Of a stretch of DNA of 64,000 nt, positions 29,099 through 52,600 are shown one piece after another. Origin of the DNA: Panicum virgatum (Eukaryota > Streptophyta > Magnoliopsida > Poales > Poaceae); NCBI RefSeq assembly GCF_016808335.1, contig NC_053147.1, positions 18,276,913 to 18,340,912 on the forward strand. Reading direction: 5' to 3'. Position numbers and translations under genes: made by a program. The notes under the pieces are model-generated. The model was not told where the DNA came from, ran no database searches, and worked only from the letters and a program-made list of their open reading frames with translations. Within the stretch, counting starts at the first letter, position 1; each line of letters opens with the position of its first letter.

Positions 29099-31306
29099 AT
29101 GGCGGCGGCGGCGGCGATCTGCGTGGAGGACGAGGCGGCGTGCGCCGCGGCGGAATGCGCGGGGATCGAGAAGCTGGATCTCGCCGCCGCGGGCGGCGGC
29201 GGGGCCGCGGGCGGTAAGAGGAGCGTGTACCTCATGGACTGCGCGCCGGTCTGGGGCTGCGCGTCCACGCGCGGCCGCAGCGCCGAGATGGAGGACGCCT
29301 GCGCGGCGGCGCCGCGGTTCGCGCACGTGCCGGTGCGCCTGCTCGCCAGCCGCCGGGACCTCGACGGGCTGGGCCTCGACGCCGACGAGCTCCGGCTGCC
29401 CGCGCACCTGTTCGGCGTCTTCGACGGCCACGGCGGCGCCGAGGTACGCGGGCTTGGAAACCCGTAAAAAGGCACTCGATCGATCTGCTTGCCTGCAGCC
29501 TGCCCCATGATTTGACAATTCGTCGCTTCGTGTTGCTGTGCAGGTGGCGAACTACTGCCTGGAAAGGCTCCAGGTGCTCTTGAGCCAGGAGCTGGGCCGG
29601 CTCGGCAAGGATTTGGGGGAGGTGGACATGAAGGAGCACTGGGACGAGCTGTTCAGCAAATGTTTCCAGAGAGTAGATGACGAGGTGTCAGGGCGGGTGA
29701 GCAGGCTCGTTGGCGGTGTACAGGAATCCAGGCCGGTTGCTCCGGAGAACGTGGGCTCCACAGCGGTTGTCGTGGTAGTGTGCTCATCTCATTTGGTGGT
29801 TGCGAACTGTGGAGATTCACGGGTTGTGCTCTGCCGAGGGAAGGAGCCAGAGGCGTTGTCCATTGATCACAAGGTAAGTTTTTATTTTGTGTGTTGGTGC
29901 CTGAGATCCATCCTGAGTTCTTGTGCCTGACACTTGTTGTTTCAGCCTGACAGGAAGGATGAGCGGGCGAGGATCGAGGCCCTGGGAGGCAAGGTCATCC
30001 AATGGAATGGTTACCGAGTGTCCGGTATACTTGCTATGTCGCGATCAATAGGTATGAATATTTATTCATGTGCTTGATTTAGGTAAAATAGTTTCCTTTA
30101 TGGTTTTTGCACATGAGAATTTGCAAAGCTTCTGCTGCATGATTAAGAGTATTTAATTAGGTGAAATAGGACTTTATAGGGATCAAGTCTATGTTGGGAT
30201 TAATTTTGTTGCATGTGATAATCATAGGATGTTGCAATATGATGTCACAACTTCCTAGGGGTGTTACTGTTGTTTATGTTAGACAAGCATGTTGATGAAT
30301 CAAATGGAGTATTATTCCATATGACCTAGGCAAATTTTACTCTGGCCATTTTTTGTTGAAAGATTCTGTATTGCGCTAATGGTGATTTTTGCTAGATGCT
30401 ATGTTTGTGTGACAGGCATTTTGTAAGATGAGAAATTTCTATGTGCCTTGTTCAATTAACATGATATACTTGTTTCATATTAAAAAAAATAAATGCTTAC
30501 TCGATCAGCAATTTGGGTTGGAATAACTTGTCTCTATGTGAGATAGGAAGCATGTTAGACTTAATACTCTTCTGAAATCATTTCTGGAATTTGACTGCCT
30601 GGATATTGGCTCTAATGCTATCAATGAAGTTGTAAAACAGCCTTATATATATTTCTATGATAGAACTCAGACTGCAGATTTGATTAGGAAAAGCAGTTAC
30701 TTCTCCAAAGTAGAAAAGCCATCTTTTATCGACGCCACAAAGGTGTCTGCAGCTTGGACCATGCCTAACAATGGGTCTTGTTCACAATTCTTGCCCTACT
30801 CAAATCAACTTCACTATTGCATTTAACATTTGGACAATATTGTTCCTCCAATTTCACCTGAAAATTTAGTTGAACCAACAGTTCAGCTGATTCTCTGTGC
30901 GTTGGATAGCGCTCGTCCAATTTTTGTGTTACCTTCTAACTTGAACTTGGAAACACTTATTGCAGGGGATCGATATTTGAAACCGTTTGTCATTCCAAAA
31001 CCAGAAGTTACAGTCATTCCTAGGGCGAAAGATGACGACTGCCTCATTCTTGCAAGTGATGGACTGTGGGACGTTGTATCGAATGAAGAGGCATGCAAAG
31101 CTGCACGGCGACAAATACAGTTATGGCACAAGAACAATGGCGTTACAGCATCATTGTGTGATGAAGGTGATGAGTCCACTGATCCTGCTGCACAATCCGC
31201 TGCTGATTATCTTATGAGGCTCGCGTTGAAGAAGGGGACAGAGGACAATGTCACTGTCATTGTGGTCGACTTGAAGCCTCGAAAGAAGCTAAAGAACAAC
31301 TCATAA
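29099..31306 (+). CDS. Clade-A protein phosphatase 2C (ABA signalling), 4 exons, 373 aa
   Basis: Exons are 29099-29443, 29544-29873, 29946-30051 and 30966-31306 (1122 nt, one open frame, all GT-AG introns). The enzyme is a Mg/Mn-dependent Ser/Thr phosphatase. Clade-A members dephosphorylate SnRK2 kinases and are inhibited by ABA-bound PYR/PYL receptors. Visible motifs are MEDA near 64, DGHGG at 109-113, GSTA at 186, NCGDSR at 203-208, SRSIGD at 257-262, ASDGLWDV at 290-297 and GTEDN at 351-355. Trp245 in [11 protein letters not shown] aligns with the receptor-lock Trp of ABI1. The basic tail ([10 protein letters not shown]) and overall sequence closely recall rice OsPP2C50, from memory. The start at 29099 was chosen because it begins the family-like Ala-rich N-terminus; an in-frame start at 28994 would add 35 implausible residues. 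It is convergent with the myosin gene, with 566 bp between stop codons. Confidence 0.95.
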
Positions 31307-31872: not shown

Positions 31873-34686
31873 CTACTGCAATATAAAGGTAAAGCCCTGG
31901 TTCTCGCGGATAAAAGGTAGCAGGTCATTAATTGACGTCTCCTCAATGTTTAGCATGGACTTGGCAATATCTTCAAGTGAAAAGGGTATGCTGCCAAGAG
32001 GAATGAAACATTGAGTGTACCCAAGCAAATATCATTTGGGGGACATGAAGACTAGAGCCTGTAAATTGTCATGGAACAGACCTGGAATCATCATCCAGAA
32101 GAACTGAAAAGCTGGAGACGCTATTTGGTTCCTCACGCATTGTAGCTCTCATGCTTGATATGAACTGTGAAAAGTAACGGAATTAAACGAAGGTCACCAG
32201 ATTTTCAAACCAAAACAATCTATAAGACTAAAAGGATTAAGGCCTATAGTCTTGCCTCAGCTGAAGTTACATTCGTTCCATTTACATCGTCCCAATACAT
32301 ACCAACTATCCTCTCTAGCTGCTGCAAACTGAGATCCTGAACAAATAGCTAAATCAGTACGGAATACAGTGTCAAGTCAAAATGACCCATGATTCTTGGC
32401 AAAGTGTACACTTACCGGGCAAATATCATTGCGTATCTCATCCCATGTCCTTATTGGCTTTAGAGAAATTACCTGATGAATGAAAGGGATAGGGAGAATA
32501 TTTGAGAGAAGGTAAATTTCAGACAGTTCAGATTGTCCCCAACAGTCACAAAGGTTTTCTTCTTCTTAAGGGAAGATGATACAAACCACGAAGTCAACAG
32601 CTTGTCTTATATACCTCAGTGCTGCCCATGCGGAATCTGCAAACTGGTCAATACGAATCATAAATTTGCAGAAGTTAATTTTTCTTTTTAAAAAGAGATT
32701 GTAAAATGAGCAGGTTACAGAGAAACTGTAGTTGCACGGTGCTAGTTTAAAAAAAATGAGATATCCTGGGTTGTCACATAAATGCCAGATATGTAGCACT
32801 GCAAAAGGGTCCATCACTCCATTTTGTTAGCTTGGGGTGTAACGTTTTAAAGACTAGGTTTTGTTAACCATTAAGAACAGCGAACCTTTGTAATTCTGTA
32901 ATTTACTCTTGAAGATGTCAATGCTTTTATAGCATAAGGGTTAGCTCGTCGTGGGAGGGGGTTTAAACCCTGATGGCACAAAAAAGTAGATCCCTCGCTG
33001 TCAACCCCCCACCCAAACAAAAAATAGTGGCAGGGTGCCGGCCTATGATAATGTTGGGGTCCTAGAGGGGTAGTAGCAGAGGTCACTGCAGCTGGAGCCC
33101 TATAAGGGTGAAGCTGGGGTTTTCTCGGTCGATTAACCGATAGCTTCTTTTTAGTACAATACCATAAAGCCGCGTTTCCCCACCACCCATCCTTTTTTTC
33201 TTTTACTCTTGAAGATGTATCCTAGTACAACAGAATAATAGAGTAGTGAACCACCTCTCGACTGACATCATTGCACCAATGTTTTAGTTGAGTTAGTCCA
33301 TCTTTGATGTATTGCCCGTTGCTATAGGAACAACACTCACGTCGCAAGAGGAGCCTGTTTTCAGATAAAGAAGACCAAACATGGATTAAAGTGAGCTGTT
33401 CATACTTCTAACAAGATTTCTCGAATACACTTCTAACAAGATAACATGATAGGACGACCAAAAAGCAATTACCTGTTAAATAATTGTACATTGACCATAG
33501 AAAATATCTGGGTAAGCAATTTGTGGACCAAAATTGTGGGAACCTACAAAATAAGCACATTATGACATTTTTATAATACTGCAAATGGATAATGCATTGA
33601 TGATTGTGTTTGTTCAGCACCTACATGATTGGCTCTGAGAACATGCAGATAGTTGTTGAAAATTTTCACGATGCTCAGCCAATGCATGAGTTGTTCCTGT
33701 TGGCCAAAACCGCTAGCAGGAGACAGCGAGGCCTTTGCTTGAGTCGAGTAAGAAGTTCTTGGATCCTAAAGATTTAGAAATTCCCCAGATTTTCAATGGA
33801 CAAAGTTTTCATAATGGATGATTCCTTTGGTCAAGAAGTGTGGTACCTGGATACACAGCTCAAGTAATGGGTTTAGCTCCTTCTTCATTCTATCGCTTAT
33901 CATTCCGTACACCTTTTCAATCTGATCCACTAGCTGCTGTTTGAAGAGCAAAGCTGGATATTTTGCTTCAATTTGGTGAAACCCAATAGCTCCATCGATT
34001 TGAGCACTGAAATAAGCAAGTCCATTGTTTGGAGCTTGATTGGCTTGAAAAATCCTCTCGCATGAAAATCTTCGTCTATGTGGAGTTGAGACTGTTGTCC
34101 TAGAGACTTTAAATGAACGTTGCAGTAGAACTGATAGTGTGGACAAGTTGGATAACCAATAGGCCAGCACCCTTGTATCATGTTGAGCCTTGAAGTAAGA
34201 ACATCGATTAATATTACACGTACTGGAAACTTCGATGCATAAAGGTGTATCATATAGAATTACAAGGTGCGGATTATGAGCTACTGGAGTACTGCTACAT
34301 TCTAAGGAGCTTAAATAAAATAAAGAGAAGTGCTACAAACCTCAGTTGCTGAGTTTACAACTTGTATAATAGTGTCAAAGACACCTGTCTTTGCTTCTTC
34401 AAAAGATCTCCAATGAAGAAGACAATAGAATATAAGAGGAGCAGCAATTGGTTTACTGCCAGAAAATCCAAGATACTGGGTAATGTATTTCAGCAATAAC
34501 TGCTGATGATTCAGGGGTTGCTGGTGCTGAAAAGGCTACCAAAAATAACAAAATTGTCATTCAATGCTAAAGATTCATAATAAATTTAACAAGAAGAGAA
34601 TAACAAACTCACACCTGATATACTTCGTTAAGTAACCTTTGCCCATTTTCATAATCCTTGTAGCTTATCAAATCAGGGGAACTGCC
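31873..34686 (-). other. Myosin globular tail (dilute domain), exons 39-49
   Basis: Residues from about 1719 to the C-terminus form the cargo-binding tail. Recognisable segments are [76 protein letters not shown] and the end [13 protein letters not shown]. Intron 47 (after 32256) starts GCAAGA, a GC-AG intron. The stop TAG is at 31875-31873. Confidence 0.9.
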
Positions 34687-37600
34687 CTGCATTTTTTAAA
34701 ATAAAATATTCAAGATCTAAATAAATTTATATAACAAATCGAAAGACATGCAGCCCTGTTAAAGAAAAGAATGATATGCAGCCATATGCTTGGTTAAACT
34801 ACCATTGAGGCTCTTGTTTCTGTTGGACCAAGTGAGGACTTCATTTCAGCATATGCTGCGTTGCCATTTAAAATATGACCATTTTCTTGACATCTCTGTT
34901 GAAATTCATCTACTAGTTCAGATTTAAATATCATCAGCAATTGAAATTGAGCTCTACTGAAGATATATTACATGGATCATACTGATTTTAGAGCATGCAG
35001 CTTGAGACTTGGCGGTAGATGGAGGAGTCGTAATTGCTTGTTGACGAAGCGCTTGATTTTCGGACTCTAAGTTGGCTGATTTGACTTCTAACCTATGTTC
35101 GTGGAAAGATAGGAATAATAAAAAGTTGGCCACATAAAGACAAGCAAGATGTAGCCAAATGAAACGAATTGCCACATGGAAGAAAGTTATTTTGTGGCTA
35201 TGCTACCTTTCTAGGTTCTCGTGAAGCTGAGTAACAAGTTTACCAGAATCTTCAATCTTCTTCACCAAATCATCATTTCTTTTTAGGAGGTCTTCATTTC
35301 TTCTTATTAGATTTTCATTTCTTCCATGAGTCTCAGTATGTACATTTTTTACAACAGCGCCTTCTTGTTTCTCCATTCCAAAGTTAGACAATCTTGATAT
35401 GGCATCTACTTGAAGCCTAATTTGTAAAGACATTAGTCTCCAAAAGGATGATAGAATATAATTTGATGGCACTGTAGTTGACAATTAGATAAAAGCAAAT
35501 TAAGATACCAACTTCTGCACAGTATCTTGAAGCTGGTGGGCCCTGTATTCACTATCCCTAACTTTCTTAAATAACACATCATTTCTCTCCTGAGCTTCAA
35601 CAAGGGACCTCCTGATTGTTTCATTTTCTTGTCTTTCAGCTTCCAATGAAGCTGCCATATCCTCCTTAATCCTGTTTTGGAGGCATAAACAACAGCCGCA
35701 ACTTCATAATGTTTGTTTTGACCGAATGCAACTTCATGATGTTGATTAATAATAATGCACATCAGGAAAATTACAAGGATTGAGAATAAAAAAGGAGAAT
35801 GCATAAAACCAAGGTGTTGTGTGATGCATGCTATAGAGCGATAGATGAAAAGTTCCAATCTATCTTAGAAACTCATAAATGCACTTCTATTTTTATTTTA
35901 TGCTGCTACCATTCTTTCAACTTTAATAGGCTTTCAATACACAAAGACAGTCTGCATGCATGCATCACATGTGTGCCATCATCAATGTCTCACTCACTTT
36001 GCATATATATATTTTTAGAACATGTGACACCTATTATGTAAACAGGTAGTGTGACATAAGAGTGTCGTGGCAATATAATTATGATACTATATTTAATATA
36101 GAGGGACATCTAGGTGCTACGTTAACAACACCAGAGGACAAATAGGTGTGATTTTTAGTCTGGAATCAAGTGCCTTATAACATTGATTTTGTAACATGAG
36201 AAGAAATTCGAAAAAAAATATATGAATTTGGTACATGCAAAATAATATACCAGCTAATTTGAATATTTATAGTAAAGTTGGGTGGTCATTTGAAACATAT
36301 CATCACTTTCTTTTTAGTTTTTGAAATTCATTTTTTTTTTAAAAACACATCACATGCTCAGAAGGGAGAAGTATAGGCATGTACTTGTAATATAATATCC
36401 ATAAAGCTTTATTGAAGGTACATACGAATTTATAGTGTTTTGAAGATGCTCAACTTTTTTGTTGGCTTCTTCAGTTTTCATCAGTAGCTCTTCATTTTTG
36501 TATTCACTCTCAGTAAGTGCTTTCTTCAATGCATCCTTCTCACGTCTCTCAGATAGCAGCAAAGCATCTTTTGCTGTATTATCACCAAGCCTGCGATTGA
36601 TCAACTATTATGTCAAGTACCATCTACATTTACGTAAGCACACTAACTACATCAACATCAACATCAACAAAGCCTTTTAATCCCAAGCAAATTGGGGTAG
36701 GCTAGGGTTGAAACCCAACAAAGACCATTATTCATGGTTCTGGCACGTGAATCGCGGCTTTCCAAGCACTCCTATCCAAGGACAAATCTCTAGGTATACT
36801 CCAGTCTTTCAAGTCTCTTCTAATTGTTTCTTCCCATGTCAACTTCGGCCGGCCCCTGCCTCTCATATTACCGTCGTGCTTTAGGATACCACTATGCACT
36901 GGTGCCTCTGGCGGTCTCCGTTGGACATGTCCAAACCATCTCAGCCAGTGTTGGATAAGCTTTTCTTCAATTGGTGCTATCCCTAGCCTATCCCGTATAT
37001 CATCATTTCGAACTCGATCCATCCTTGTATGCCCACAAATCCAACACAACATGCGCATTTCTGCAACACTTAATTGTTGGACGTGCCGCCTTTTTGTAGG
37101 CCAACATTCCGCACCATACAACATTGCCGGTCTAATCGCCATTCTATAAATAAACATTCACAGATCCGAACACAGTTTAATGAAACAATAGCTGTATAAA
37201 GTACCTTTGCACGCTGCCCTGAAGAAGACCAATTTTTTTGTCAACATCCTCAAGCTTCTTTAGAAATTGCAAATTTCTTTCTTGACTTTCAGCTTGTGCT
37301 TTCATGGTTGCATTGTTTTGTTCTCGTTCTCTCAACATTAAAACCTCTGTAGCAGATGCGTTTTCCTGAAGCCTATTCTCAGGTAGAAATATGGAGTTGA
37401 TTCAAAAATTAAAAAAGATAATCTTCTGATAGAATTCATATCCCTAGAGGTTGCTAGGCAGACAACAAGGAATGATTATGGACCTCTCAATAGTTAGCTG
37501 AAGCTGAAATATATTTTTATCATGATCCTGAATTTTCTTGATTAACTCCTCATTTCTCCACTGAGTTTCAGTTAGAACTTTCTTGGTCATCTCATGTTCT

Positions 37601-40600
37601 TGTTTTTCTGATAACAAAAATGCATCTTTGGCAGTAGCATCTGCTTCAAACCTTTAGAAAACACAATGAAAGGTCACTATCATAGTGTAATGATAATATT
37701 GATAAATAAGTTGAGACATGCATCCTCTGAAGAGAAAGAATCAGACCTCTTGATGGTATCTTCCAATTGTTTTCTTGTTTCTTCGGACTGTTGTGACTCG
37801 TGAATTAATTCAGTGATCTTTTTCCGGGCATTGTCTACATCTTTGTTAGTTGTTTTGTGTTCTTGCCTTTCTACTTCCAACAAAGAGTCTTTCTCTGCTA
37901 TGCATTCTTCTAGTCTATGTGCAAAGAAAAAAAAATCCTCAAGCAATGGCAGACCATAAATGCTTCTAACAAATGGAATCTAACCTGCTAACTGAATCCT
38001 CAAGCATATTGATTTTTTTAGCTGAATCCTCGAGACTTGTCATCAAGTCTCGGTTCCTCCCTCGAGCTTCAGTTAATGCTTTTGTTGTGCAGTCGAGATT
38101 TTGTTTTGTCTTAAGAAGCAAAGATTCCCTTGCTGTTGCATGCTTCTCAAGTCTAAATTCATTGAGGAAAAGGAAACATGTGTTAGATCATAAAGTTGAA
38201 AAATACAGGAGTATCTCACTTAAGTTGCACATATTGCATTATGCTTCAGTAAACAAAGCCCAGCTATCCAAATAGTAGAAGCATGATAAGAACCTCTGAG
38301 CATTCTCCAACATCTTGTTTATAGTTTTCTCGCTATCATCAACTTTCCAAAGCAATTCCCAATTTCTTTCCTGAGCTTTCAAAAGTGCTTGCTTGGTTTC
38401 ATCATGCTCTTTCCTTTCTGCTACATATAAGCCATCCCTTGTGGTCGCATTTTCCTCACACCTGTATTCAGTGAGCAGAAACTCTAATACTGCCAACTCA
38501 TTATAGAGGATAGAAATAAAGATATGAATAAAGGCAGAGGCTGCATTGCAAAAGTTGTTAGAAAGGTAGAAAATAACGCCCACACAAAACTATGACCAAT
38601 CCTCTATACCGTACACATCATCACCATGACTTAAATTATACTTTTGATCCTTCATTTTCAAAGAGGTACTGATAATGAACCTATGGGACTCCCTTTTCAG
38701 TTTCATGAAATCATAAGTACCTTGCTCATGAATGAATTTTTTTTAGTATATGATTAACTTGAACACCAATTATTCTTATTCCTTCCAAACAAAAGAAAAA
38801 CAAATCATACCATCACCGATTGTTGAAGTATGCTAACATTGAGGAATTAATGTAACATGAGAAAATAACCTTTTCAAAGAATCTTGAAGCAAATCATTTG
38901 TCCTATTAGCATCTGCAAATTTCTTCTGCAGTACTTCAATATCCTGTTGTGCTTCAGCTAATTGTGAAAAGATTGCAGTACTCTGTTGTTTTTCAGCTAA
39001 CAATGAAGTCTCCAATGTTGTTGCAGTTACTTCGAGTCTATGTTAATTGAAAATAGAAATCAGCATTGTCGTTTTACAATTATGATATTATAAAAAATAA
39101 AAAACATTGGAAGGAGTTTAGAACTGAAGTCAAGCATGGATGAACTCAAGGACAGGAAAAAAGCAATTTTCGGAATCATGCAATTTACCTTTGGGTGTTG
39201 TCTTGGAAGTTACTAATGTCTTGTTCAGCTACTTTAATTTTATTGAGTAGTTCCTCGATTTTTGCATGAGCTTCATTGAGTGATTTCTTGGTTGCCTCAC
39301 TTTCTTGTCGTTCTGTAAGTAAAGTAGACTCTCCCTCAATTAAGATTTTTTGCAGCCTGTGTTCATGAGGAAGAAAATTAATGAAGTTTAAGTAAACTAA
39401 ATGGTCCTATATTTCTACATAGTTGTTGAGAATCACAGATAATAGTACTTTTGCAAAGATTATATGAGTGTATGGCAAATCTTATATTTCTTACTAAAAT
39501 GACCTTTGTACAGCAGTCTGAAGCTCTGTGGATTTTCCATTGGTATCTGCAATTTCCCTCAGTAGTTCTTCCACCCTTTGGTGTGCTTCACTTAGTTCCC
39601 TTCTAGTAGTCATGTTTTGTTCCTTTTCCATCATTAGTGAAGACTCTAGTTCTGTCACATTCTTTTCAAATCTGTATTCAACGGACAGGAAGAAAGTTGT
39701 AGTTTCAGAATAGAAAGGATGAGACTTAATTTACTTTATTGTAATCAAGTATAAGATACAAAAACGTATCAGCACATTCTACAACATAAGAAATGGAACT
39801 AAGAGAAAGGTTGGAGTTAGTTGTATTAGTGGGCCTTTGCGGATTAACAAAAAAGCATGCTCTCCTCAATCTTCAATTCTCTATTACTTATTAATTTATA
39901 TCTTGAGTTTCAACGAGTAACCAGAAGTAAACTGTCATTTATATTTGCAATCTTTAGCTCCCTTAAGCTGTGACAAAACTAGATATTATGAACTCAACAA
40001 AGAAATAAACTAGTACTGAGAGCTACCTGCTCTATCACAATGATCACTAGGATGATGAAGTGCATTCGGACAGTTTTATATTTTTTTTCTCATACACACA
40101 GGAGAGCTGCATATCATTATATTAAGAAGAATAAAAAAAGGAAACAGCCTTGACAACAGATACACCCATTCTCTAGGATTTGAAGGAACAAACACGCATG
40201 TGAACAACAAGAGATTTGGTCGAACAGGTTCCCGAAGCAAACATATTAGTTTAACAGAGTATTTGATTTCCTTGCTAGTACTTCATCTCACTTTTGAGTT
40301 CTTGATAGTGCGATCTTATTTGTTCATGTCAATATCTTTTAGCTAGTGTGATCTTAATATATGTTTCATGTTACCTGGTACATTCTACTGCAGAACTGCT
40401 TGTCTGAAATTGCAATTACTAGTGTCAAACAAGCATTTCAATGAACCAACAAATCTTTAGTGCCCAAATATTATCTTAGTATTGTAATGTGGTTTAGCAA
40501 TGACAAAATAAATCCAGGTAGCATACAAGGTCAGCATTTTAAATATGTGTGACTGCGTCAAAAAGCATCCATGTCCGATACATGTGCTCATAGAAGAATT

Positions 40601-43600
40601 CGTTGGTAAATTGCATAAGGTTTTCAAAAGACATCCTTTTATGACAGACCTCTGCATCAAAGCAGCAATGTTAAGGGATACGTTTGGTGGTCCTATCCTG
40701 AAAGGAATATTACTTTTTAGTTTTGGTTGTTTAAACAAATTAAGGCCTAAAGTCACTGAGTAACCTACCTCTTCACAGTACCTCTAAGTTGCTCCATGTT
40801 TTCATCTGCAACCACAATTTTTCTAGTCAATGCATCATTTTCTTCCTGAGCATTCACAAGTGCACTCTTAGTTGCACTATTTTCTTCTCGTTCTCTTAGT
40901 AGTAGAACCTGTCAAAGTCACAACCATCCATAAAAAATAATATCATGCCATAGATAAATAAGTTACATCTAGCATCAGATTCTAATCAAACATGGATATA
41001 TTATATAATGGGTTGTTCTTTTTATTGTTTACCATGAAACAAATGCTGTAATTGTATTTCATTTGATTAGAATGCAATAATTTAAGCCTTGCCAATCTAC
41101 GCAGTTGAGATAAATCCTATGTTGATTTAGGGAAAAAAGTACAAGACCTTCAGCTCCTCAACTTCATTAGTCAATGAAGTGATCTTTTCTCTTTCTTGAG
41201 CCAAAGCTTCTTCAATGGCCCTTTTGGCTAATTCTCTTTCCTGCATCTCTGTGGCTTCTTCCACCCGCCGCTCCATTTCACGAAGAGCAGCCTGTAGTTT
41301 GGAAATTTCTCCTGCTTTGTTCTTCTCTAGATCAGTCTGAAAAGGTGATATTATGTGAGAATAAATTCTCCAGTTAATTCATCCCACATTATCCTAATTC
41401 AAGAGCAGCAACTACCCTAAGTTTCTTTTCCAAGCCTAAACGGCTAGTCAACTCTTCAACATGCTCCTCAAGTTTCTCCTTCTCCAACTTTAGGGCTTCT
41501 GTGTCCCTTGCAGCCTACAAAATGTACCGACAAATAAATGAAAATATACAGAAATAGCATGATTAAAAACAATGATACAACTGCTTCATCCATACCATTT
41601 TGAGCTTTCTGAGTTCGCCTCTAGCAACCCGTCTTCTCCATGCACACTGATAAATTAACACTGATCTCTTAATTTTACAATAGTTAGAATAATCTCTATG
41701 GCATCGCCACCAAGCCTGCAGGCAACCATTCTCAGAGTGATATTTAAAATATGTCCATGTAAAATATGAAAGTTGGAGGTTGTAACTAGCTTTCCCTTGG
41801 ATAAAATAGAGTGAATCTGTGGTCTACCTGGATACGAATAGAGGCTTTATTTTGTTTTCTGATATTGAATTCCTTATAAGCACCAAACACCCTTAATCCT
41901 GCCTGCAGCGTAATTGCTGAAGAGCGTAACTTAGAATAAGAGTTCCAAGCAACATAGCAGCGGTAACTTTTCTGTATTTGCAATGCCGCAGCTTGTTTTC
42001 TCATTAGAACACGTAACTTACAAGCGAGTATTACTGCAATAGTTAATGGTACTCTCAGTATACGATATGATCTGAGTAATGAGCATTGTTTCTACTTGGG
42101 ATACCAACTAACAATACCTTACCTCTAACAAAAGATTGAAAAGATATTGATGTCTTGCGTAATACAAGGAATTTCTCACGAGCAGCATGAGTGCGAAATC
42201 TACTCTGAACAGCTCTAGCTGCTTTATTCCGCACTTCAGTTCTTCTAGCATCTAATTCAGCCATCTGACCAGCTCTCAGGAACACTTTTGTTCTTCCAAT
42301 CTGTCACGGACATTGACAACTTAAAATATCATGATGATATTTCATTATATGTATACGCTGAAAGCAGACGTTTCTGCCATGCAATTGTATAAAAGAACAC
42401 ACCACGCAGAGTAGTTAGCTATTACTGTAGGAGAGTAGGATTGGTGTAATGTTGTGGATTGTATTGCATTGAGACCTAAGCCGGTATATATTGGGGTACA
42501 TGACTTGGAGGGCAAGCCTCCTACTGTATGGTAGAGTCCGGATACAATCCTAACTACCTATTATAGAGATATCCCAAATATACTCTAATATCCCCCCACA
42601 GTCACAGCGGGAGCACCGCAGACGGTGAGACTGGAGAAGAAGCCGAAAGCAAGAACCAACGGACTAACATCCCTCCGCAGTCATAACGTCGGTGTGGTAC
42701 GGATGCTGCGACTGGAGAGAAACTGGCGAAGCCTCATGCGGATGATAGCCCTTTGTGCCGATGTCGAGGTAGCCGAGGTGGAGGGTGAATAGCCATGGTC
42801 GACGATGCCGCGCATAGGGTAGCCGTGGTCGACGTAGAGCTGTTGAGGTTGCCGAAGACGAGGTAGCCGCACATGAAGCCGCGGGCGCACGAGGAGGCGC
42901 CATGGTGGTGGCGTAATGGAGAAGACGCCGGAGACGAAGATGGCGACGCGTCGAGGCAGTCGTAGAGGAAGCGATGCCGAAGTCGATGCAGTCAGGCCAA
43001 CGGGCGACACATGCCCGGGTTTGCCAGGCTCGGGAATGCGCCGGGGATGATGGGCGCGCACCGGTGTTGCCAATACCGGACGTACAAGGGAGGATGCACA
43101 ACCAGACGCTGTCGCCAGGAGAACCAGCAGAGAAGACCTCCATGGCGGTCGCAGGCGTAGAAGAAGGCGAGATAAAAGATGCCAACACCTGCTGTTGCTG
43201 GAGTAGACGAAGTAGTCGGGGACGAGATGGCGACGCTGGCGACGTGGTTGTGCTAGACGAAGCGAGGGGAACCCAGATTTTCTAGCACAAGGCCGAATGA
43301 TCCGGATGACGCGGCGGCGGCGCTCAAAAGAGACGGCGAAGAACTCGTACAGCTTGACGAAGACCATGCGCGGGGCGCGCAGAGACGAGTCGACGATGAG
43401 GTCGGGGACGTGGTCGACGGCGGTGAGGAAGCAACGGCGGAGAAGACCACGGGGTGATGCCACTGCTGCCCGAAGAGGCGACGCAGCGACAACCCTCCGT
43501 GCTTGGTGAAGGGCGCGCTCGACGAGGACGGACATCACGGGAGCCGGGTGGATCACGCATATCGGCTGATCAGACCGAGTAGCGTGAGGCGAGACGACGG

Positions 43601-46600
43601 TGGGCGAAGTCGGTGAAGGCGTCCCAATCAGTGAAGGTCGACGTGCGGATGAGGCGGCGATGTAGGTGGCGGCACAAACGAGCGCCCCCTAGGGTGCCGG
43701 CTATCTTGCCATGCCGTAGGGTCGGAGAGGAAGAAGAGGCCGGTGAAGTCGACGCCGACATCGAAGTAGAGGCGCGAGGTCGACGGGCGGTGGGCGACGC
43801 AATCCCGATCTATGATCGGGCAAAAGATAAAAGATTGATGCAGCAGCAGCTCGTGTAGTACCTCCAGGTGTGCCTAGCCCATCCCTTCATCCTCATGTTT
43901 TCTGCCTCTCACGGTTGACACAACAGCCACGGGAGAAAGAGAAAACACAGAGGAAGCCAGGGAGGGGCCAGCGAACGGCGTTGTGGAGGAGGACGAGGCG
44001 GATCCGCGGCGGATCCCGCAGAGGCGGCGGCGCCCGGCGGCGGATCCCGCCAGGGCGGGCAGCGAGCCGCGGCCCGCAGGGGGGCCGGGGCGGCGGATCG
44101 GGCGCCCGGCGGCGATGGAGGGCCCTAAGTGACACGGGATCCGGGCGGGGTGCACGGACCGCAGCGCGACGGGGCTGCGAGGTGGAGATGCGACGCCTCC
44201 AAGGAATCCGCCAGCGACGAGCAAGGCACCTCGCGGGACCCTGCTGCCACCATGGCAGCACGGGTAGGTCGCTGGTGCCGCGGGGAGACCGCTGCTGCCG
44301 CCGCGTCAGCGCAAGTCAAGGTCGTCAGCGACGGATTCCATGGCGGCTGGGCGGAGATACCTTCAATCCACTGCTGCTGACGCGATACGGCGGGTCGGCG
44401 GCGGACTAGAGGATCCGCCGCAAAGGAGGGGCGCTGCCCCTGGCGGAGGTCATGGACGACCTCCCCGGGGGCGCGCTACTGGGCCGTGGAGGGGACGCCC
44501 TGGATAGGCGCCGTGGGAGACGGCCGGCGGCGAGCAGGAGGCAGGGGCGCGACGAGAGGCAGCGGAAGGTTTAGGTCAGGATCTGAAACCCTAATCTCGT
44601 GATACCATATAGGAGAGTAGGATTGGTGTAATGTTGTGGATTGTATTGCATTGAGGCCTAGGCCGGTATATATTGGGGTGGTACATGACTTGGAGGGCAA
44701 GCCTCCTACTGTATGGTAGAGTCCGGATACAATCCTAACTACCTATTATAGAGATATCCCAAATATACTCTAATAATTACATACTCTGCTTGTTGGCAAT
44801 AAAAATATAAATCAACAATAGACAAAAAAAAACAGCTGATGGAGTAATGGTGCTAACCAAAATCATCAGGTGCTAGTGCTATAAATCAGTTTTGGAAAAA
44901 ATCATAAATAAAATATGGACCAATGTTATTCACACGAAGTATTCCATTTACATCTTTGTTATTTACCACATCATAGACTGTTGTTACTTGACGAGAACAA
45001 GCAATGCGTGTTTTACTTGACTGACTTGTTTTGTTATATAAGTAGAAATGAAAAGAATGTAGGCATATGACACAAATAAAGGCATATAACATAAACAATC
45101 ATAAACATAGTTTTCTTCACCTGATAACCATGGAGTTCCATCTTGTCTAGAATCTTTTGGCACGACACCTTTTCATTGTTTCTATCAGATATAAGAGAAG
45201 AGTTATATTTTGCTATCAGATCTGGGAAAAAATATTTTGCTACCAAACTTGTTAATCTAGGCCATGTGCTCTCTATATACATACAAACTGAGCCTATGAG
45301 ATTAGAACTGCAAAGAATATTTGTTTTCACTAAAAATAGCACACTCGAGACTTCTCCCAAGAGGAAGAAAAGACTTTAAGGTGTACTATGCTAGGTATGA
45401 TGACAATGCAAGAAAATGGATACACGTTAGCGCCACGGCTTTCGTGATAATTGCTCATTTCATTGAAGCAACATCGGCTTCGTATGCTCAAACTTAATGC
45501 TCCAGATCATCCACTTCCACCTTGAGTTTGAAGGATAGGTCCCTCGCTCCCTCGCTCGCTCCCTCCCTCCCTCCCTCAACTCTGCGAGGTCAGTAAAAAA
45601 ATTGAGTGCTCACCTTTCTATGAAAATTTCAGGAGCAAGAATGCGAAACCGACAGAGAAAATCATGAAATATTTTTCTTGTAGGATATCCAGCACAGCTG
45701 ATTCTAATAGCTTCAAGAACACCCTGAAATGCCAACAAACCATTAGAGTATACAATGGTGCTTCTAAGGAAAATTTGCCATGAGTGATCTGTTGCTTACT
45801 GAACACCGAAGTTGTTGCAGTACACTGATGTTCTCAAATGTAGTAGGCTTAAGAATATTGTTGGGCTTAATGCATCTAATGTAATGAGGTTCAGTAGAAC
45901 TCAATGTCTCCATTAGTTCTTGGAGTTGCCACTGGGAGTTACATGGAAGTTATCAGATAATAAATGACACTAGCAGATAATAAATGACACTAGCCCACAA
46001 TACAATGATTTTACAAGAAACATAGCTCTATGGTCGAACAAAATTATATATTCTCTTCCCTTCCTCCATCAAGTATTATGCATTTACTTTCTAGATTAGT
46101 TGTTTCATATCCTACAAATATAATACATTTCTACGACACCCCATGTCCAAAATCCGCTCATAGCTCAACTCACTGATGAGGCAAGCCCTTGCGTGCACTT
46201 CACCTACCTAAAAAAGGTTTAGCTTGAAGGTGTTATGTGTTAGAGTATATTAGGGATATCTCTATGATGGACTATGGATAAAAACCCCCACCCCTCCCAC
46301 TATAATACCTGGGTTTTATGGTCGGGTTGGCTAGGTGGGGCGCGCTAACATGGTACCAGAGCCGAGGTCCCGGGTTCGAACCCACCCGGCCACACATTTC
46401 CGCTGCGCGATTTTCCCTGCGCCTCTCGTGTGTTGAGACCTGCTGCGGGCTACGCCGGGCACTAGAACCTGCTGCGGGCTACGCCGGGCTCGCACGCCGT
46501 AGGGGGAATGATGGACTATGGATAAAAGCCCCCACCCCTCCCACTATAACACCTGGGTTGTATGGTCGGGTTGGCTAGGTGGGGCGCGCTAACACTCTAT

Positions 46601-49600
46601 ATTAGGTAGATTAAGATTGTATCCGTATCCTACCCATAGTCACAAAGTTCCTGGGTCGACCGGGTCGAGGAACGGGGTCGAGGGTCGTCACTTTATAAAA
46701 TTGTGGTACGAAGGGGGTATACCTCTATGGAACGATAAATTATTATGTGGAACGCGACCCTGATTCATCGGGTCGATATCTTCGGGTCCATGTGTCTTTA
46801 TAAAAACAAAAACTATAAATGTGGTACTAATGAAGAAATTAATCTGCTCAAGCATATAAGAAACGTATAAAAGAGTACATTTCGACCATACTACACGTAT
46901 TCAGCTCATTTTCTAACAAAAACCACACCAATCCACTGTCATTAACCTCCTTTTCCCAATTAAATCTGCAAACAATGGGGCTGCGACCCCTTTCAAACCG
47001 GGACGCGATCCAACCTTGAATGGGACACTGATCCTCTTCGACCCCGACCCTCGAATCGGAACGGCGATCTCGGGTCGTGGGACGAGGCATCGACCCCGAA
47101 TCCTGTGACTATGATCCTACCATATCTGTAGAAGAGGCTACTTGCCTTCCAAGTCATGTGCGATCCTCATCTCTATTCCTCCCACATGGTATCACGAGTT
47201 TAGATTTTTTATCTAGGGTACAAACCCTAAAGCTTCCGCTACCCGACGCCTCTTCTCCTCCACGCCACCGGTCGGCAGTCATCCACTGTGTGCGATCTTC
47301 GCACCCCCTCTCCGGCCATCTAGCGCGCCCCCGGGGAGATCCCCCTATGAGGATCTCTGCTGGGGCAGCGCCCCTGTTTAGGCAGCGGATCATATTGATC
47401 CGCCCGCCACCATCGTCTTGGTCGCAGTAGCAAATCAAGATCTCTTTGCGCAATCGTCGTCGCCTTGGATCCTCACCGCGTGGAGGCAGATGGAGATTGC
47501 CCCATCCAGTGCCATTGTGGTGGCGGCCGGGTCCAGCCACGCCCAGATCCACGTCGCCATGGAGGCGGCCAGATCCGGCGCGTCGCTGCTGGGCAGATGT
47601 GCCCATCTCCACCACATCATCTCCAACCTCGCGCGTGCCCATTGACCTGCGTCGTCGCTGGCTGGAGCCGCTCTGGCTCTCCTCCTGCTGGCGCCCTCTT
47701 ATGGGTTCTTCGAGCGCCGTGGCCTCCGCCTGTGCTGCGCGGGGTTCCGGCAGTGGGCGGTCGGCTCCACCTCCTAGGCTGCATCTGAGGGCAGGGCAAC
47801 GCATCGCCTGGACTGGATGCGGGCAGTAGGCGGCCGGATCCACCTTTGCTGCTCGAGGCCTCGCGGGGGAGAGTGCAGCCGCCGTGCGGGACGCCCCTCC
47901 TGCCCTGCTCTCCGCTCGTATGAGATGAGACGAGGATAAGGGTAAGGAGGCTCATTGCTAGGTGCACCCCGTACGTGAGATGCACATGAAGGATCACGTA
48001 TTGGCTGCTACTGTATCCTTTTTGGTTTACCCGATCACTGATCGGGATTGCGTCGCTCACCGCCCGTCCACCTCGCGCCTCTACTTCGACGTCGGCGTCG
48101 ACTTCACCGGCCTATTCTTCATATGGCGATATGGACAGTGTCCTAGGGGACGCCCGTCTGCACCGCCCTCCTCGCCGCTTCGTCCGCACGTCGACCCTCG
48201 CCGGCTCATCATCGCCTCCACCGATCGGGACGCCTTCGCCGACTTCGCCCACCGTCGCCTCACGCTACTCGGTCTGATCAGCCGACATGCGTGATCCATC
48301 CGGCTCCCGTGACGTTTGTCCTCGTCGAGCGCGCCCCTTCACCGAGTACAGAGGGCTGCCGCTGCGTCGCCTCTTCGGGTAGCAGCGCCGCCACCCGTGG
48401 TCTCCTTCGTCTTGCATCTTCACGGCCACCGACCACGTCCACGACCTCGTTGTCAACGACGGGCAGCTGCGCCTTGTGCGCATAGTCTTCGTCAAGCTGT
48501 TCGAGTTCTTCGCCAACTTATACGACCGCCGCCGCCGCGACCACTATGCCAAGCTAGCTGGCCTTGGGGCTAGTGCTTGGCTGCTCTATCTCTACGCTTC
48601 GTCTAGGACGACCTCGTCGCAACCACCATCGACTCTACTTCGCCTACTTCGTCTACTCCGACAACCGCGGGCGGCTCCGACTTCTTCTCCCTCGCCGTTC
48701 TACACCGCAACTGTCGTCGAGACCTCCTCTGCTGGTCCCCTACATTCTGCGACTTGGTTGTGCGCTCTCCCTTGTACGTTCGGTATTGGCAACACCGGCA
48801 CGTGCCTTCGTCCCCGACGCGCTACTGGGTCTGGCAAACCCGGTACTCGCCTCGACTTTGGCGGTTTGAAGGCGTCATCCTCCCTTCGTCCTCGACGCAT
48901 CAACATCTTCGTCTACGGTGCCTCCGCGCAACCACTGTTTGACGCCCCCTTGCGCGCCAACGGCTTCATGTGCGGCTACCTCTGCATCGGCTACCTCGAT
49001 AGCTACGTCGACCACGGCTACCCTACGTATGGCATCATCGACCATGGTTACTCGTCCTCAGCTCGGCTACCTCGACATCGGCACAAAGGGCTATCATCTG
49101 CTTGAGCAACCTTGTTGGTTTCCACTCCAGCCACAGCATCTGCGGCGCACTGACCGTTGTGACTGCGGGGGGATGTTAGTTTACCGACTTCTCTCCAGTC
49201 TCACCGTCTGCGACGTCCCGCTATGACTGCGGGGGGATGTTAGAGTATATTAGGGATATCTCTATATTATGTAGATTAGGATTGTATCCGTATCATACCA
49301 TATCTGTAGGAGAGGCTACTTGCCTTCTAAATCATGTACCCCTATATATACAGTCCCAAGGCTCTGGCTAATACAATACAACATTATACACATCCAGTAG
49401 ATTAGGATTGTATCTGTATCTTACCATATCTGTAGGAGAGGCTACTTGCCTTCCAAGTCATGCACCCCTATATATACAGCCCCAAGGCTCAGGCTAATAC
49501 AATACAGCATTATACACATCTCTATTCCTCCCACACTATGTTTCGGAACACAAAGGATTGACTCTCACCTACCTAAATCTCCGTATGGTACTAATATGAC

Positions 49601-52600
49601 CATGATAAGGCAGCTACTGATGGACTGAGGTATTATATTTACTCTAGATTTGAGGCCAAGTGGATCTCTAAGAATTTAGTTCTCAAAAGACAACCAAAGT
49701 CAAACCTCAGGTGAACAAATGGAACTTCCTCAGGAATTTTTCTCCAACCAACTTTGATATGGAATTGCAGGCATAATAATCAAGTAGGACTGTAGGAGAA
49801 TCATACCTTGAAGCGAGTAGCAATGGAAGTCTTTGATGCTTTTGTGTTCTCCTCTAGTACCGATGGGAATAACCCTGACACAAATGAGCACCTGGAAGCA
49901 TTAAGTAACTCTTGATGTTCTACAACTACATAGTCTCTGTTTTTGTCCAGGAAATGGTCAGACTGATAGGTTACCTGGAAAAGAAACATGAAATTTAAAG
50001 GAATGTACTCGACCAAATGTACTGAAAGGAACGCTATATTGTGAAGAATTCTTACTTCTCCCGCATAATGTTGTATGGTAAATGCAGTGCGAGAAAGCTT
50101 TGGCTTACTAAATCTTTTGTTATTCTTGAATTTCTCATACAACTTCTGGGAAAATGATTCATGTGTGCATTTAGGAAACATACTGGTGCACAAAGAATAA
50201 ACCAAAAAAATTCCATTAAAAGAATTGATTCAGAAATAGAAATAAATAGTTCTCTTCGTAGCACGAAGGAAACAATTTATGATGTGCTTTTTATATTATC
50301 AAATACAATATAAGAAGTTCAGACTCACCAAGCTTCATCAAGAAGTGCAATAATTCCACCAGGTTTCTGAACATAAAGAGAGGAGATAGGAACATTGAAC
50401 TTTAGAAATGAAAAAATATATAAAAGGATAATGAGAATACACATTCATGTTAGCCCCTAGCACTACCAACCATGTTTCTTTTTTAGACCACCATCCAATG
50501 TTGTTGCAAAAGAAATTGTCATGCACAATGTCTCTGGTGATTGTAATGATAAGTTAGGAAATACCAAATAGCTCCAAGTCCACAAAAACGTAGTAATGCA
50601 GAATTGTTAGAAGAAAATATATTGCTTAATAATACAGCCCCTTTTGATAATTTTGAACACAGAAGGGCTACATTGGAATGGCTACAAGGGATAAATAAAA
50701 GCCTTATACTGACTGAAATTGCACCTCACAAACGTTTGATGAGAAAAGGAGAGGCAGGTTGCAACAATGCATTAGAAAAACACTTGGGGGCTTTGTATTA
50801 AGAAGAAAGTACTGAAAGTAGGCACCCAAATTCGCCTTGGCGAGGACTTGAATTTGCATACTTCCACACCCTCAATCACCTGAGTTAGGCTCAGCTTTGC
50901 ATTCACAAAACAGCATAATAGCTCATACATAGGCTACAGTTCTGGAGACTGACCAATGATACTTTTTTTTTTCATAAAGCTGTTTTGGATGCATTTGTGG
51001 GAAGGCCTACTTTCATAAAATCCTAAGCAGAATTGGCAGAAGTTCAACAACACTACCACACCCACACATTGTCCACAACCGCAGCGAATAGAAACAAGCA
51101 GCTATCTCTTCAAATAGATGCCCTCTCAAATAAAACTAAAGAAATCACAACATACCTTCTCAATCAAGTCCAGAACATCTTGGTTGTCGACAAATTCTAT
51201 GTAACTCCAGTCAATCTGCTCCCTGTTGTACTCTTCCTGCTCCATTTTAAAAACATTCTGCGATGACAAATACTAACTCTTTTACCAACACATAGAAGCA
51301 AAGAGAAGTATAATATCATGAACATCCAAACATTTCTTCGACAAGTACCTGATTAAAATGCTGTTGGAGTTTTTCGTTGGTGAAATTGATGCATAATTGT
51401 TCAAAGCTGTTTCCATAGTACGATAAAGACATGAGACATCCATAAATGGACTTCAATTGTAAGTTGAAATCATATTTTAGTAAATAATTTACCTATTAGT
51501 CTTAAAACTTTCAAAACCATAGATATCAAGTACTCCAATCAATCGGTCGGAGGATGTATCTTGTCCTATGGATGCATTTAGTCTGTTTACAAGCCTGCGC
51601 ATGGTACAAGCACATACACTTACAAGGGTGCACTACGTACATGATTTAGGAATTAAGTACATGGTAGTATTTTGTACCAGTCAAATAGTCGAGAATATAT
51701 TTGCTTTGCTAAGCCATCCCTACTAACAGTAGCGGAATTAGGATCAACTGTTGTGGTTATAACGCCTTCTGGTGTATTTATTTTTCTCTTTATCAATGCA
51801 TTCTCCAGATTCCCGCAATCGCACCTGTAATCAGAATGCCACAATGCATCATAGGTTATAAATGTGAATGTAGCGTATTAGGGCTTAGGTCCCTATCGTA
51901 CTCCCTTTCATGTTCTGTATTTGACAAGAAAGAAAGAAAATTTGTAAAAAAAACTATAAAAGGATGGAGGAGATATTAGACATACATCAAGAGATCTGCT
52001 GCTGCATTAAGATGAAACCTAGCTTTCTCATCCTTTAGTAAAGATGAATCTACCTCTCTCCCTTTCACAAAACTGATATTCCCAAGGTGGAGAATAGCAG
52101 CAACTACCCGGAATGTAGCCTCCTGCAATATAAATGAATTAACAAAAAAGGTTATATGCACATCCACATCATATATTTGGTTGAGAAATTCTTGTCAGAA
52201 ACCTGCTCCTGTTCAGTAATGCCAACTGTATTCATCGCACTTCGTGTTGCAAGATACTCCTTAGCATCACTAATTTCGTCAAGTTTAATGCACGTGGATT
52301 GGTTGAGATAGTGAAACGATGACGGGTCAGCCAGCTTATACCTTTTGATATCCTGCCAATATGGTATATACATCAGCAAAAAAACTGGAGACAAGACCAG
52401 TCAATCATATCGAGATAGGAAATTTACCTCTGATGGTGCTGCACATAGGAAGTAAAAGCAATGATAGTTTCTCTCTGGACTATTGATTTGGCAAACACGA
52501 GATCTTTCAAGCAAGTATGTTCTAATGGCAGTGCCTGATATCTTCCCACTCTTATCAAATTGGATTTCAACAAATTTGCCAAATCGACTTCATCATGTCA

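What the first reader, a model, noticed from the sequence alone, without database searches (positions are those of the whole stretch)
37205..39671. Eight consecutive 168-nt, same-phase exons build a giant coiled coil in a plant myosin XI
Exons at 39671, 39356, 39037, 38461, 38152, 37914, 37651 and 37372 (start positions, minus strand) are all exactly 168 nt, all split an Arg codon in phase 2, and each encodes 56 residues, which is eight heptads. Related exons lie on both sides. The predicted protein is 2155 aa, whereas known plant class XI myosins are about 1500 aa. Serial exon duplication in register with the heptad repeat would lengthen the stalk without breaking frame or register. The scale of this expansion looks unusual and may be grass-specific.
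Basis: partly seen in the sequence, partly recalled or inferred. Interest (0 to 1): 0.88.

Follow-up and report, generated by a model that had tools for sequence, protein, structure and literature searches.

The report
Exon array lengthens a grass myosin
A switchgrass motor-protein gene carries a row of near-copies of one small exon that together build an unusually long stalk; this was described in grasses in 2013, but published gene models suggest that a sister gene varies its stalk length by leaving such exons out, which still needs testing.

Summary
Confirmed to the base: eight consecutive minus-strand exons of exactly 168 nt, phase 2-2, AG/GT borders, open frames, in an intact 49-exon class XI myosin gene (2157 aa) of, by inference, Panicum virgatum 3N. 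Three related exons follow (165, 159, 210 nt). One heptad register prevails through the eight (43 of 59 windows) and shifts at the 165- and 159-nt exons. The array is under purifying selection (omega about 0.26); two of three listed models of the 3K homeologue contain all 11 array exons.

This is known: Myo11E1 of Mühlhausen & Kollmar 2013, who describe same-frame exon clusters in Myo11E1 (exons 25-36) and Myo11E2 (25-40) and name P. virgatum data among those used. My exon numbers coincide.

Not found in print: many deposited Myo11E2 models lack whole array exons, nearly always from six central ones (f30-f35), so lengths often differ by 56 residues across grasses. Stalk length may be tuned by splicing. 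This rests on gene models; I saw no reads.

The parts
31873..55424 (-). Myo11E1 gene, 49 coding exons, 2157-aa open reading frame
   Evidence: exon model by hand from splice sites and frame, no stop inside; Pfam Myosin_N 9-52, Myosin_head 65-719, DIL 1978-2081; 47 of 47 exon peptides queried (exons 2-13 and 15-49) matched in the homeologue on C3; exons 1 and 14 were too short to query
41148..41336 (-). exon 24 (189 nt), coiled-coil exon before the array
40769..40908 (-). exon 25 (140 nt, phase 0-2), first exon of the published cluster
   Evidence: in another class XI gene of the same genome one coiled-coil exon stands where this gene has twelve (from matches and open frames, splice sites not checked)
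39504..39671 (-). array exon 26, 168 nt, phase 2-2
39189..39356 (-). array exon 27, 168 nt, phase 2-2
38870..39037 (-). array exon 28, 168 nt, phase 2-2
38294..38461 (-). array exon 29, 168 nt, phase 2-2
37985..38152 (-). array exon 30, 168 nt, phase 2-2
37747..37914 (-). array exon 31, 168 nt, phase 2-2
37484..37651 (-). array exon 32, 168 nt, phase 2-2
37205..37372 (-). array exon 33, 168 nt, phase 2-2
36426..36590 (-). array exon 34, 165 nt, phase 2-2, one residue short: preferred heptad register shifts
35513..35671 (-). array exon 35, 159 nt, phase 2-2, three residues short: preferred register shifts again
   Evidence: the Oryza glaberrima and Brachypodium copies are 56 residues
35207..35416 (-). 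array exon 36, 210 nt, phase 2-2, with three near-identical 7-residue units ([21 protein letters not shown])
   Evidence: also 210 nt in the three other genes scanned
31873..35092 (-). exons 37-49, end of the coiled coil and globular tail with the DIL domain

Best explanation
The locus is the switchgrass 3N copy of Myo11E1, a class XI myosin. Its stalk was lengthened when a coiled-coil exon was duplicated in tandem again and again, each time with flanking intron. The unit is 168 nt, phase 2-2 and 56 residues (eight heptads), so each copy adds about 8.3 nm of helix (at 0.1485 nm per residue, established value) without changing the reading frame or the heptad register. Shown here: the intact gene, exact unit size and phase, one prevailing register, purifying selection, array formation before the Myo11E1/E2 split, and deposited models of the homeologue that join all array exons. 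Inferred: that the protein dimerises through a stalk of roughly 117 nm (residues 879-1669) and that the long stalk places cargo or tail far from the motor.
For: Exact exons; intact 49-exon model and domains; the homeologue has the same 11 array exon lengths; two of three listed 3K models, P0001 and P0002, contain all 11 array exons letter for letter over the array; a 1973-aa maize protein (P0025), taken by its length to be the ZmMyo11E1 of PMC3935558, where six genes were completed by RT-PCR, contains all array exons but 26, with exon 34 partly aligned; omega 0.26 (0.17-0.47) over the eight exons and 0.28 (0.18-0.44) over exons 26-36, against 0.09 in the motor; hydrophobic power at period 3.5 is 5.29 against a shuffled mean of 0.18, reached in 0 of 2000 shuffles; 11 of 11 array exons have colinear best matches in Myo11E2; exon tree groups by position; a tree of the motor and neck (residues 1-878; 21 proteins, no outgroup) puts the window with the 10 Myo11E1 rows, 100/100.
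Against: No transcript of the window's own locus was seen. One of three listed 3K models (P0007) lacks exon 27, so inclusion may not be constitutive. Hydrophobic core positions are patchy: in the unit, heptads 3 and 5 have few core residues, and 16 of 59 windows prefer another register, so parts may be weak coil. I ran no standard coiled-coil predictor and no structure prediction.
Confidence: 0.9

Rival explanations
1. The array is a splicing-tunable ruler rather than a fixed stalk: symmetric 168-nt exons are cassettes that can be left out in many combinations, so the stalk varies in steps of eight heptads. This is chiefly a property of the sister gene Myo11E2 and weakly of the window gene.
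For: Of 24 switchgrass-labelled models, all reproduce my genomic exons letter for letter over the array; 21 (20 of Myo11E2, 1 of Myo11E1) lack whole exons. Among 124 Myo11E2 proteins, f30-f35 are absent in 22 to 49 proteins each, while f27, f29, f36, f38 and f39 are absent in none. Models under two kinds of name for the same chromosome, taken to be RefSeq isoforms and the JGI locus PVAP13_5KG475400, show it. For Myo11E1: P0007 lacks e27, Miscanthus models lack e29 or e26+e27.
Against: Gene models, not reads. Donor strength is not significantly lower in array introns in any of four genes (p 0.06 to 0.15) and the listed donors of one Myo11E2 copy do not single out f30-f35. PMC3850447 argues for constitutive splicing, though from cDNAs covering exons 21 to 27. 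27 of 47 Myo11E1 and 31 of 124 Myo11E2 proteins lack no exon.
Confidence: 0.45
2. The exons are mutually exclusive alternatives, one chosen per transcript, as in other arrays of similar exons.
For: Similar length, phase and sequence; raised and set aside in PMC3850447.
Against: Models join all 11 (P0001, P0002) or all 15 (P0067) exons from 26 on; every one of the 171 aligned proteins keeps several array exons.
Confidence: 0.02
3. The array is a decayed, unspliced copy.
For: None found.
Against: No stops, intact splice sites, same lengths in the homeologue, purifying selection, presence in deposited models of the homeologue.
Confidence: 0.01
4. The stalk is in part a stable single alpha-helix rather than a continuous two-stranded coiled coil.
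For: Charges alternate with period 8: power 9.0 (11E1) and 17.6 (11E2) against a null of 0.37 and 0.35, reached in 0 of 500 shuffles; opposite charges at i,i+4 outnumber like charges 50 to 13 and 100 to 26. Core positions are weak in heptads 3 and 5.
Against: About 36% (11E1) and 38% (11E2) charged residues, low for single-helix domains (recalled), and a strong heptad pattern. Repeated units inflate every harmonic of 56; taken one exon at a time the period is below p 0.05 in 4 of 8 (11E1) and 9 of 14 (11E2) exons.
Confidence: 0.15

Closest known systems
Myo11E1 of grasses (Mühlhausen & Kollmar 2013, PMC3850447; maize ZmXI-8/ZmMyo11E1, PMC3935558)
   Same: Exon cluster 25-36, same frame, long coiled coil; exon tree and motor tree place the window here.
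   Different: Nothing that changes the kind. In this copy exons 34 and 35 are 165 and 159 nt and the codons split at their 3' ends are Ser and Lys.
Myo11E2 of grasses
   Same: Same array, colinear exon by exon.
   Different: Four more array exons (26, 30, 31, 35 in 11E2 numbering); in switchgrass 14 exons of exactly 168 nt on both homeologues; deposited models often lack some of f30-f35.
Another class XI myosin gene of the same genome (C5, 36.5 Mb; subtype not assigned)
   Same: Exon order around the stalk.
   Different: One coiled-coil exon where the window has twelve, as judged from matches and open frames.

Membership tests
Myo11E1 | class XI domains: SH3-like, motor, IQ motifs, coiled coil, DIL | tested here: met
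   Myosin_N, Myosin_head and DIL over cut-off. IQ motifs were not reported for the window protein at E 0.001 and are assumed from homology.
Myo11E1 | cluster of similar exons numbered 25-36 | tested here: met
   my model, built from splice sites and frame after I had seen the passage, gives exons 25-36, the span in PMC3850447
Myo11E1 | identical reading frame of the inserted exons | tested here: met
   exons 26-36 are all phase 2-2
Myo11E1 | identical split codons at the exon borders | tested here: inconclusive
   Arg at 10 of 12 junctions, Ser and Lys at the other two; whether the published rice exons are strictly identical there was not checked
Myo11E1 | exons correspond one to one to Myo11E2 except 11E2 exons 26, 30, 31 and 35 | tested here: met
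   11 of 11 colinear best hits leaving exactly 26, 30, 31, 35; tree by position (the f28 group is weaker, 76/91)
Myo11E1 | motor domain groups with Myo11E1 | tested here: met
   21 proteins, residues 1-878, unrooted, no other subtypes included
Myo11E1 | all cluster exons in one mRNA | tested here: inconclusive
   models of the 3K homeologue only, two of three with all exons; no reads seen
two-stranded coiled coil | heptad pattern of hydrophobic residues | tested here: met
   with weak stretches; dimerisation not testable here

The most novel reading that the evidence does not exclude
Grass Myo11E2 is a motor whose stalk length is set by splicing: six central, symmetric 168-nt exons (f30-f35) are cassettes whose removal shortens the stalk in steps of 56 residues (eight heptads, about 8.3 nm), keeping frame and register, with the same zone used across grasses. 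Myo11E1, the gene in the window, may be the sister in which a short form became fixed, since it lacks f26, f30, f31 and f35, and Myo11E2 models lacking f30, f31 and f35 are deposited for Panicum, Setaria and Sorghum.
Probability: 0.45. Interest if true: 0.65.

Novelty: already known. Interest (0 to 1): 0.4.

Why it matters
The array itself is a clear, published case of a protein lengthened by serial exon duplication in register with its own structural repeat. If the cassette reading of the sister gene holds, one gene would supply motors of graded stalk length, and the effect of stalk length on transport could be tested within one natural gene.

Tried and rejected
Weak splice donors as the cause of exon skipping: array donors score lower but not significantly in any gene (p 0.13, 0.06, 0.14, 0.15). 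Position +3 is a purine in 16 of 52 array donors against 118 of 140 others, but array donors share ancestry and homeologues are near-duplicates, so this is not independent evidence. A myosin II-like 28- or 56-residue charge repeat: not found (28 and 56: p 0.40 and 0.77 in 11E1, 0.71 and 0.71 in 11E2; a 14-residue period in 11E2 reached p 0.025); the strong period is 8.

Overlap of the four exons missing from Myo11E1 with the six cassette exons: 3 of 4, hypergeometric chance about 0.17 (worked by hand), so only suggestive. Faster evolution of f30-f35: omega 0.53 (0.27-1.14) against 0.24 (0.13-0.42) for the other Myo11E2 array exons; the intervals overlap.

Synteny with the Myo11E2 loci by the neighbouring PP2C gene: present beside the homeologue on C3, no match in the fetched C5 and C14 stretches, so a whole-genome-duplication origin is not shown here. 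Non-grass monocots were not tested, because the protein search lists only the best 120 of 365 and of 363 hits. A sorghum long-read paper (PMC4931028) was searched for the word myosin only: 0 occurrences in the main text.

Limits of the counts. In one search, choice among overlapping exon candidates carried a bonus for 168 nt and for good splice letters; the borders are backed independently by the deposited models, for 3K, 5K and 5N. P0066 (Alopecurus, 2388 aa) was scored as lacking f30 and f31 beside a 112-residue insertion, an alignment artefact, so true counts are 48 and 45, and 32 proteins would lack nothing. P0111, P0128 and P0054 are partial or truncated. Species labels were typed by hand from the two listings. 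'With and without' in one species can mean different gene copies in polyploids; only for switchgrass was it checked by chromosome. Proteins are clusters at 90% identity, so counts are of models, not of independent events.
Full report
What was checked. I built the whole gene by hand from splice sites and frame: 49 exons, minus strand 55424 to 31873, 2157 residues, no internal stop, with one GC donor after exon 47. Pfam finds the SH3-like N-terminus, the motor (65-719) and DIL (1978-2081). The array is larger than eight: exons 26-36 measure 8 x 168, 165, 159 and 210 nt, after a 140-nt exon 25. A mechanical scan for phase-2 open AG..GT segments, scored by a profile of the window's exons 26-35, finds 30 overlapping candidates over 25 bits on this strand, none on the other strand, none in 30 shuffles and none in the two other minus-strand stretches scanned.

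Which genome. The window lies on contig C12 of a 1.13-Gb genome. Its homeologue lies on C3, whose length equals that of the contig carrying a protein named PVAP13_3KG321543 of Panicum virgatum. C3 is therefore taken as switchgrass 3K, and C12 as 3N (inference). By the same match C5 is 5K and C14 is 5N.

Homeologue and sister genes. The C3 homeologue has the same 11 array exons at the same lengths. A second pair of genes on C5 and C14 has 14 exons of exactly 168 nt plus the 210-nt exon (the choice among overlapping candidates favoured 168 nt, but deposited models confirm the borders for 3K, 5K and 5N). In another class XI gene of the same genome a single coiled-coil exon stands between the counterparts of exons 24 and 37 (from matches and open frames); its subtype was not assigned.

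Register. Hydrophobic residues follow a 3.5-residue period strongly (power 5.29; shuffled mean 0.18; 0 of 2000 shuffles as high). Of 59 sliding windows of 35 residues wholly inside the eight exons, 43 prefer one and the same register; the other 16 prefer another, mostly one that shares a core slot with it. The preferred register changes at exon 34 and again at exon 35, the two exons that are one and three residues short. The core is uneven: within the unit, heptads 3 and 5 have few core residues. Charges alternate with period 8 and favour opposite charges at i,i+4, a feature of stable single helices (recalled), so parts of the stalk may be held by within-helix salt bridges.

Selection. Between 3N and 3K, omega is 0.26 (0.17-0.47) for the eight exons and 0.28 (0.18-0.44) for exons 26-36, against 0.09 in the motor and 0.13 in the tail. 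Between 5N and 5K exons f26-f39 give 0.35 (0.22-0.59). Single exons vary: exon 26 has dN 0.065 and dS 0.028, exon 32 dN 0.075 and dS 0.083, too few sites to judge. Myo11E1 and Myo11E2 motors differ by dS 1.09. The array as a whole is constrained, less than the motor.

Origin. Each Myo11E1 array exon has its best match in a Myo11E2 exon in colinear order, 11 of 11, leaving 11E2 exons 26, 30, 31 and 35 without a partner. A tree of 78 exon peptides from switchgrass, two Oryza species, Brachypodium, maize and Zizania, with one ordinary class XI exon, groups by position rather than by gene or species; the f28 group is weaker (76/91), and the f29 and f31 groups are broken only by the tandem copies that I had labelled apart (only 56 columns). 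The array was thus in place before the two genes split and before these grasses separated. Growth continues: maize Myo11E2 models on two contigs carry two extra copies of exon f29 (98%, where the cut was one residue out of step; zero-length branches), and Zizania latifolia has a second f31-like exon, 68% identical. Exon 36 also holds three near-identical 7-residue units.

Known or not. Mühlhausen & Kollmar 2013 (PMC3850447; section 8 read whole, passages) describe this: Myo11E1 and Myo11E2 of Liliopsida have insertions of ten and fourteen exons with identical reading frames and split codons, clusters 25-36 and 25-40, corresponding exon by exon except 11E2 exons 26, 30, 31 and 35; Panicum virgatum is named among the data used by permission. 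Wang et al. (PMC3935558; abstract, sections 14, 15, 16 and 19 and passages read) list ZmMyo11E1 at 1973 aa and ZmMyo11E2a at 2641 aa. My results repeat theirs in one further assembly.

What may be new. I aligned all 171 proteins listed by two searches (120 of 365 hits and 120 of 363 hits) to the exon maps. Of 124 Myo11E2 proteins under 35 species labels (one without a name), 31 lack no exon. Missing exons: f30 in 49, f31 in 46, f32 in 27, f33 in 30, f34 in 22, f35 in 30; f26 in 2; f25, f28, f37 and f40 in 1 each; f27, f29, f36, f38 and f39 in none (the Alopecurus row P0066 is an alignment artefact, so f30 and f31 are really 48 and 45). Many lengths lie near 2386, 2330, 2274, 2218, 2162 and 2106; others do not, partly because of truncated models and the maize and Zizania gains. 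For f30 and f31, 12 species labels each have models with and without the exon, not checked by locus except in switchgrass. All 24 listed switchgrass models equal my genomic exons letter for letter over the array: 3 with every array exon, 21 with whole exons missing, 20 of them Myo11E2 with exons missing only from f30-f35 and one Myo11E1 (3K) lacking e27. Of 47 Myo11E1 proteins, 27 lack none; e26 and e27 are missing in 8 each, e28 in 5, e29, e30, e31 and e36 in 1 each; some of these may be true exon losses rather than splicing.

Reading. Exact exon borders, agreement of differently named models and recurrence in many grasses speak for real exon skipping in Myo11E2. But these are predicted models; I saw no reads. 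PMC3850447 inferred constitutive splicing from two cDNAs covering exons 21-27, which do not reach f30-f35, so the two do not conflict. Against a simple splice-site cause, array donors are not significantly weaker than others. Searches of the held library (rows listed 20 of 129, 20 of 25, 12 of 960, 1 of 1, 12 of 271, 15 of 71, 15 of 4,557) showed, by title and start of abstract, no other paper that appears to describe it; the library lacks most subscription journals, so this is weak evidence of novelty.

Verdict. The open question worth following is the cassette zone of the sister gene.

Noticed in passing
window 42428-44775 (intron 19) and 46264-49520 (intron 16): LTR-like direct repeats (163 and 166 nt; matching pieces 97% and 100% alike) bound a 2.3-kb stretch in intron 19; related sequence lies in inverted orientation in intron 16 (arms 74-94% complementary). 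Transposon remnants, described only.
   Followed up: partly
window 36735-37157, intron 33, minus strand: 141-codon open frame that looks like the end of a LINE-type reverse transcriptase (recalled; no Pfam match for its last 136 residues). The same intron in the C3 homeologue is only about 125 nt, so it is an insertion in the window copy or a loss in the other.
   Followed up: partly
window about 29100-31306, plus strand: A protein phosphatase 2C gene lies tail to tail with the myosin (PF00481) and is kept beside the C3 homeologue.
   Followed up: partly
window 32256, end of exon 47: A GC rather than GT splice donor is used in the model to keep the frame intact.
   Followed up: no
maize proteins P0046, P0047, P0049, P0050 and others: Two extra tandem copies of exon f29, nearly or fully identical to it: a recent exon triplication in Myo11E2.
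   Followed up: partly
Zizania latifolia protein P0048: An extra 56-residue unit, sister to f31 (68% identical): an independent array gain.
   Followed up: partly
stalk of the window protein and of Myo11E2: Strong 8-residue charge period with opposite charges at i,i+4.
   Followed up: partly
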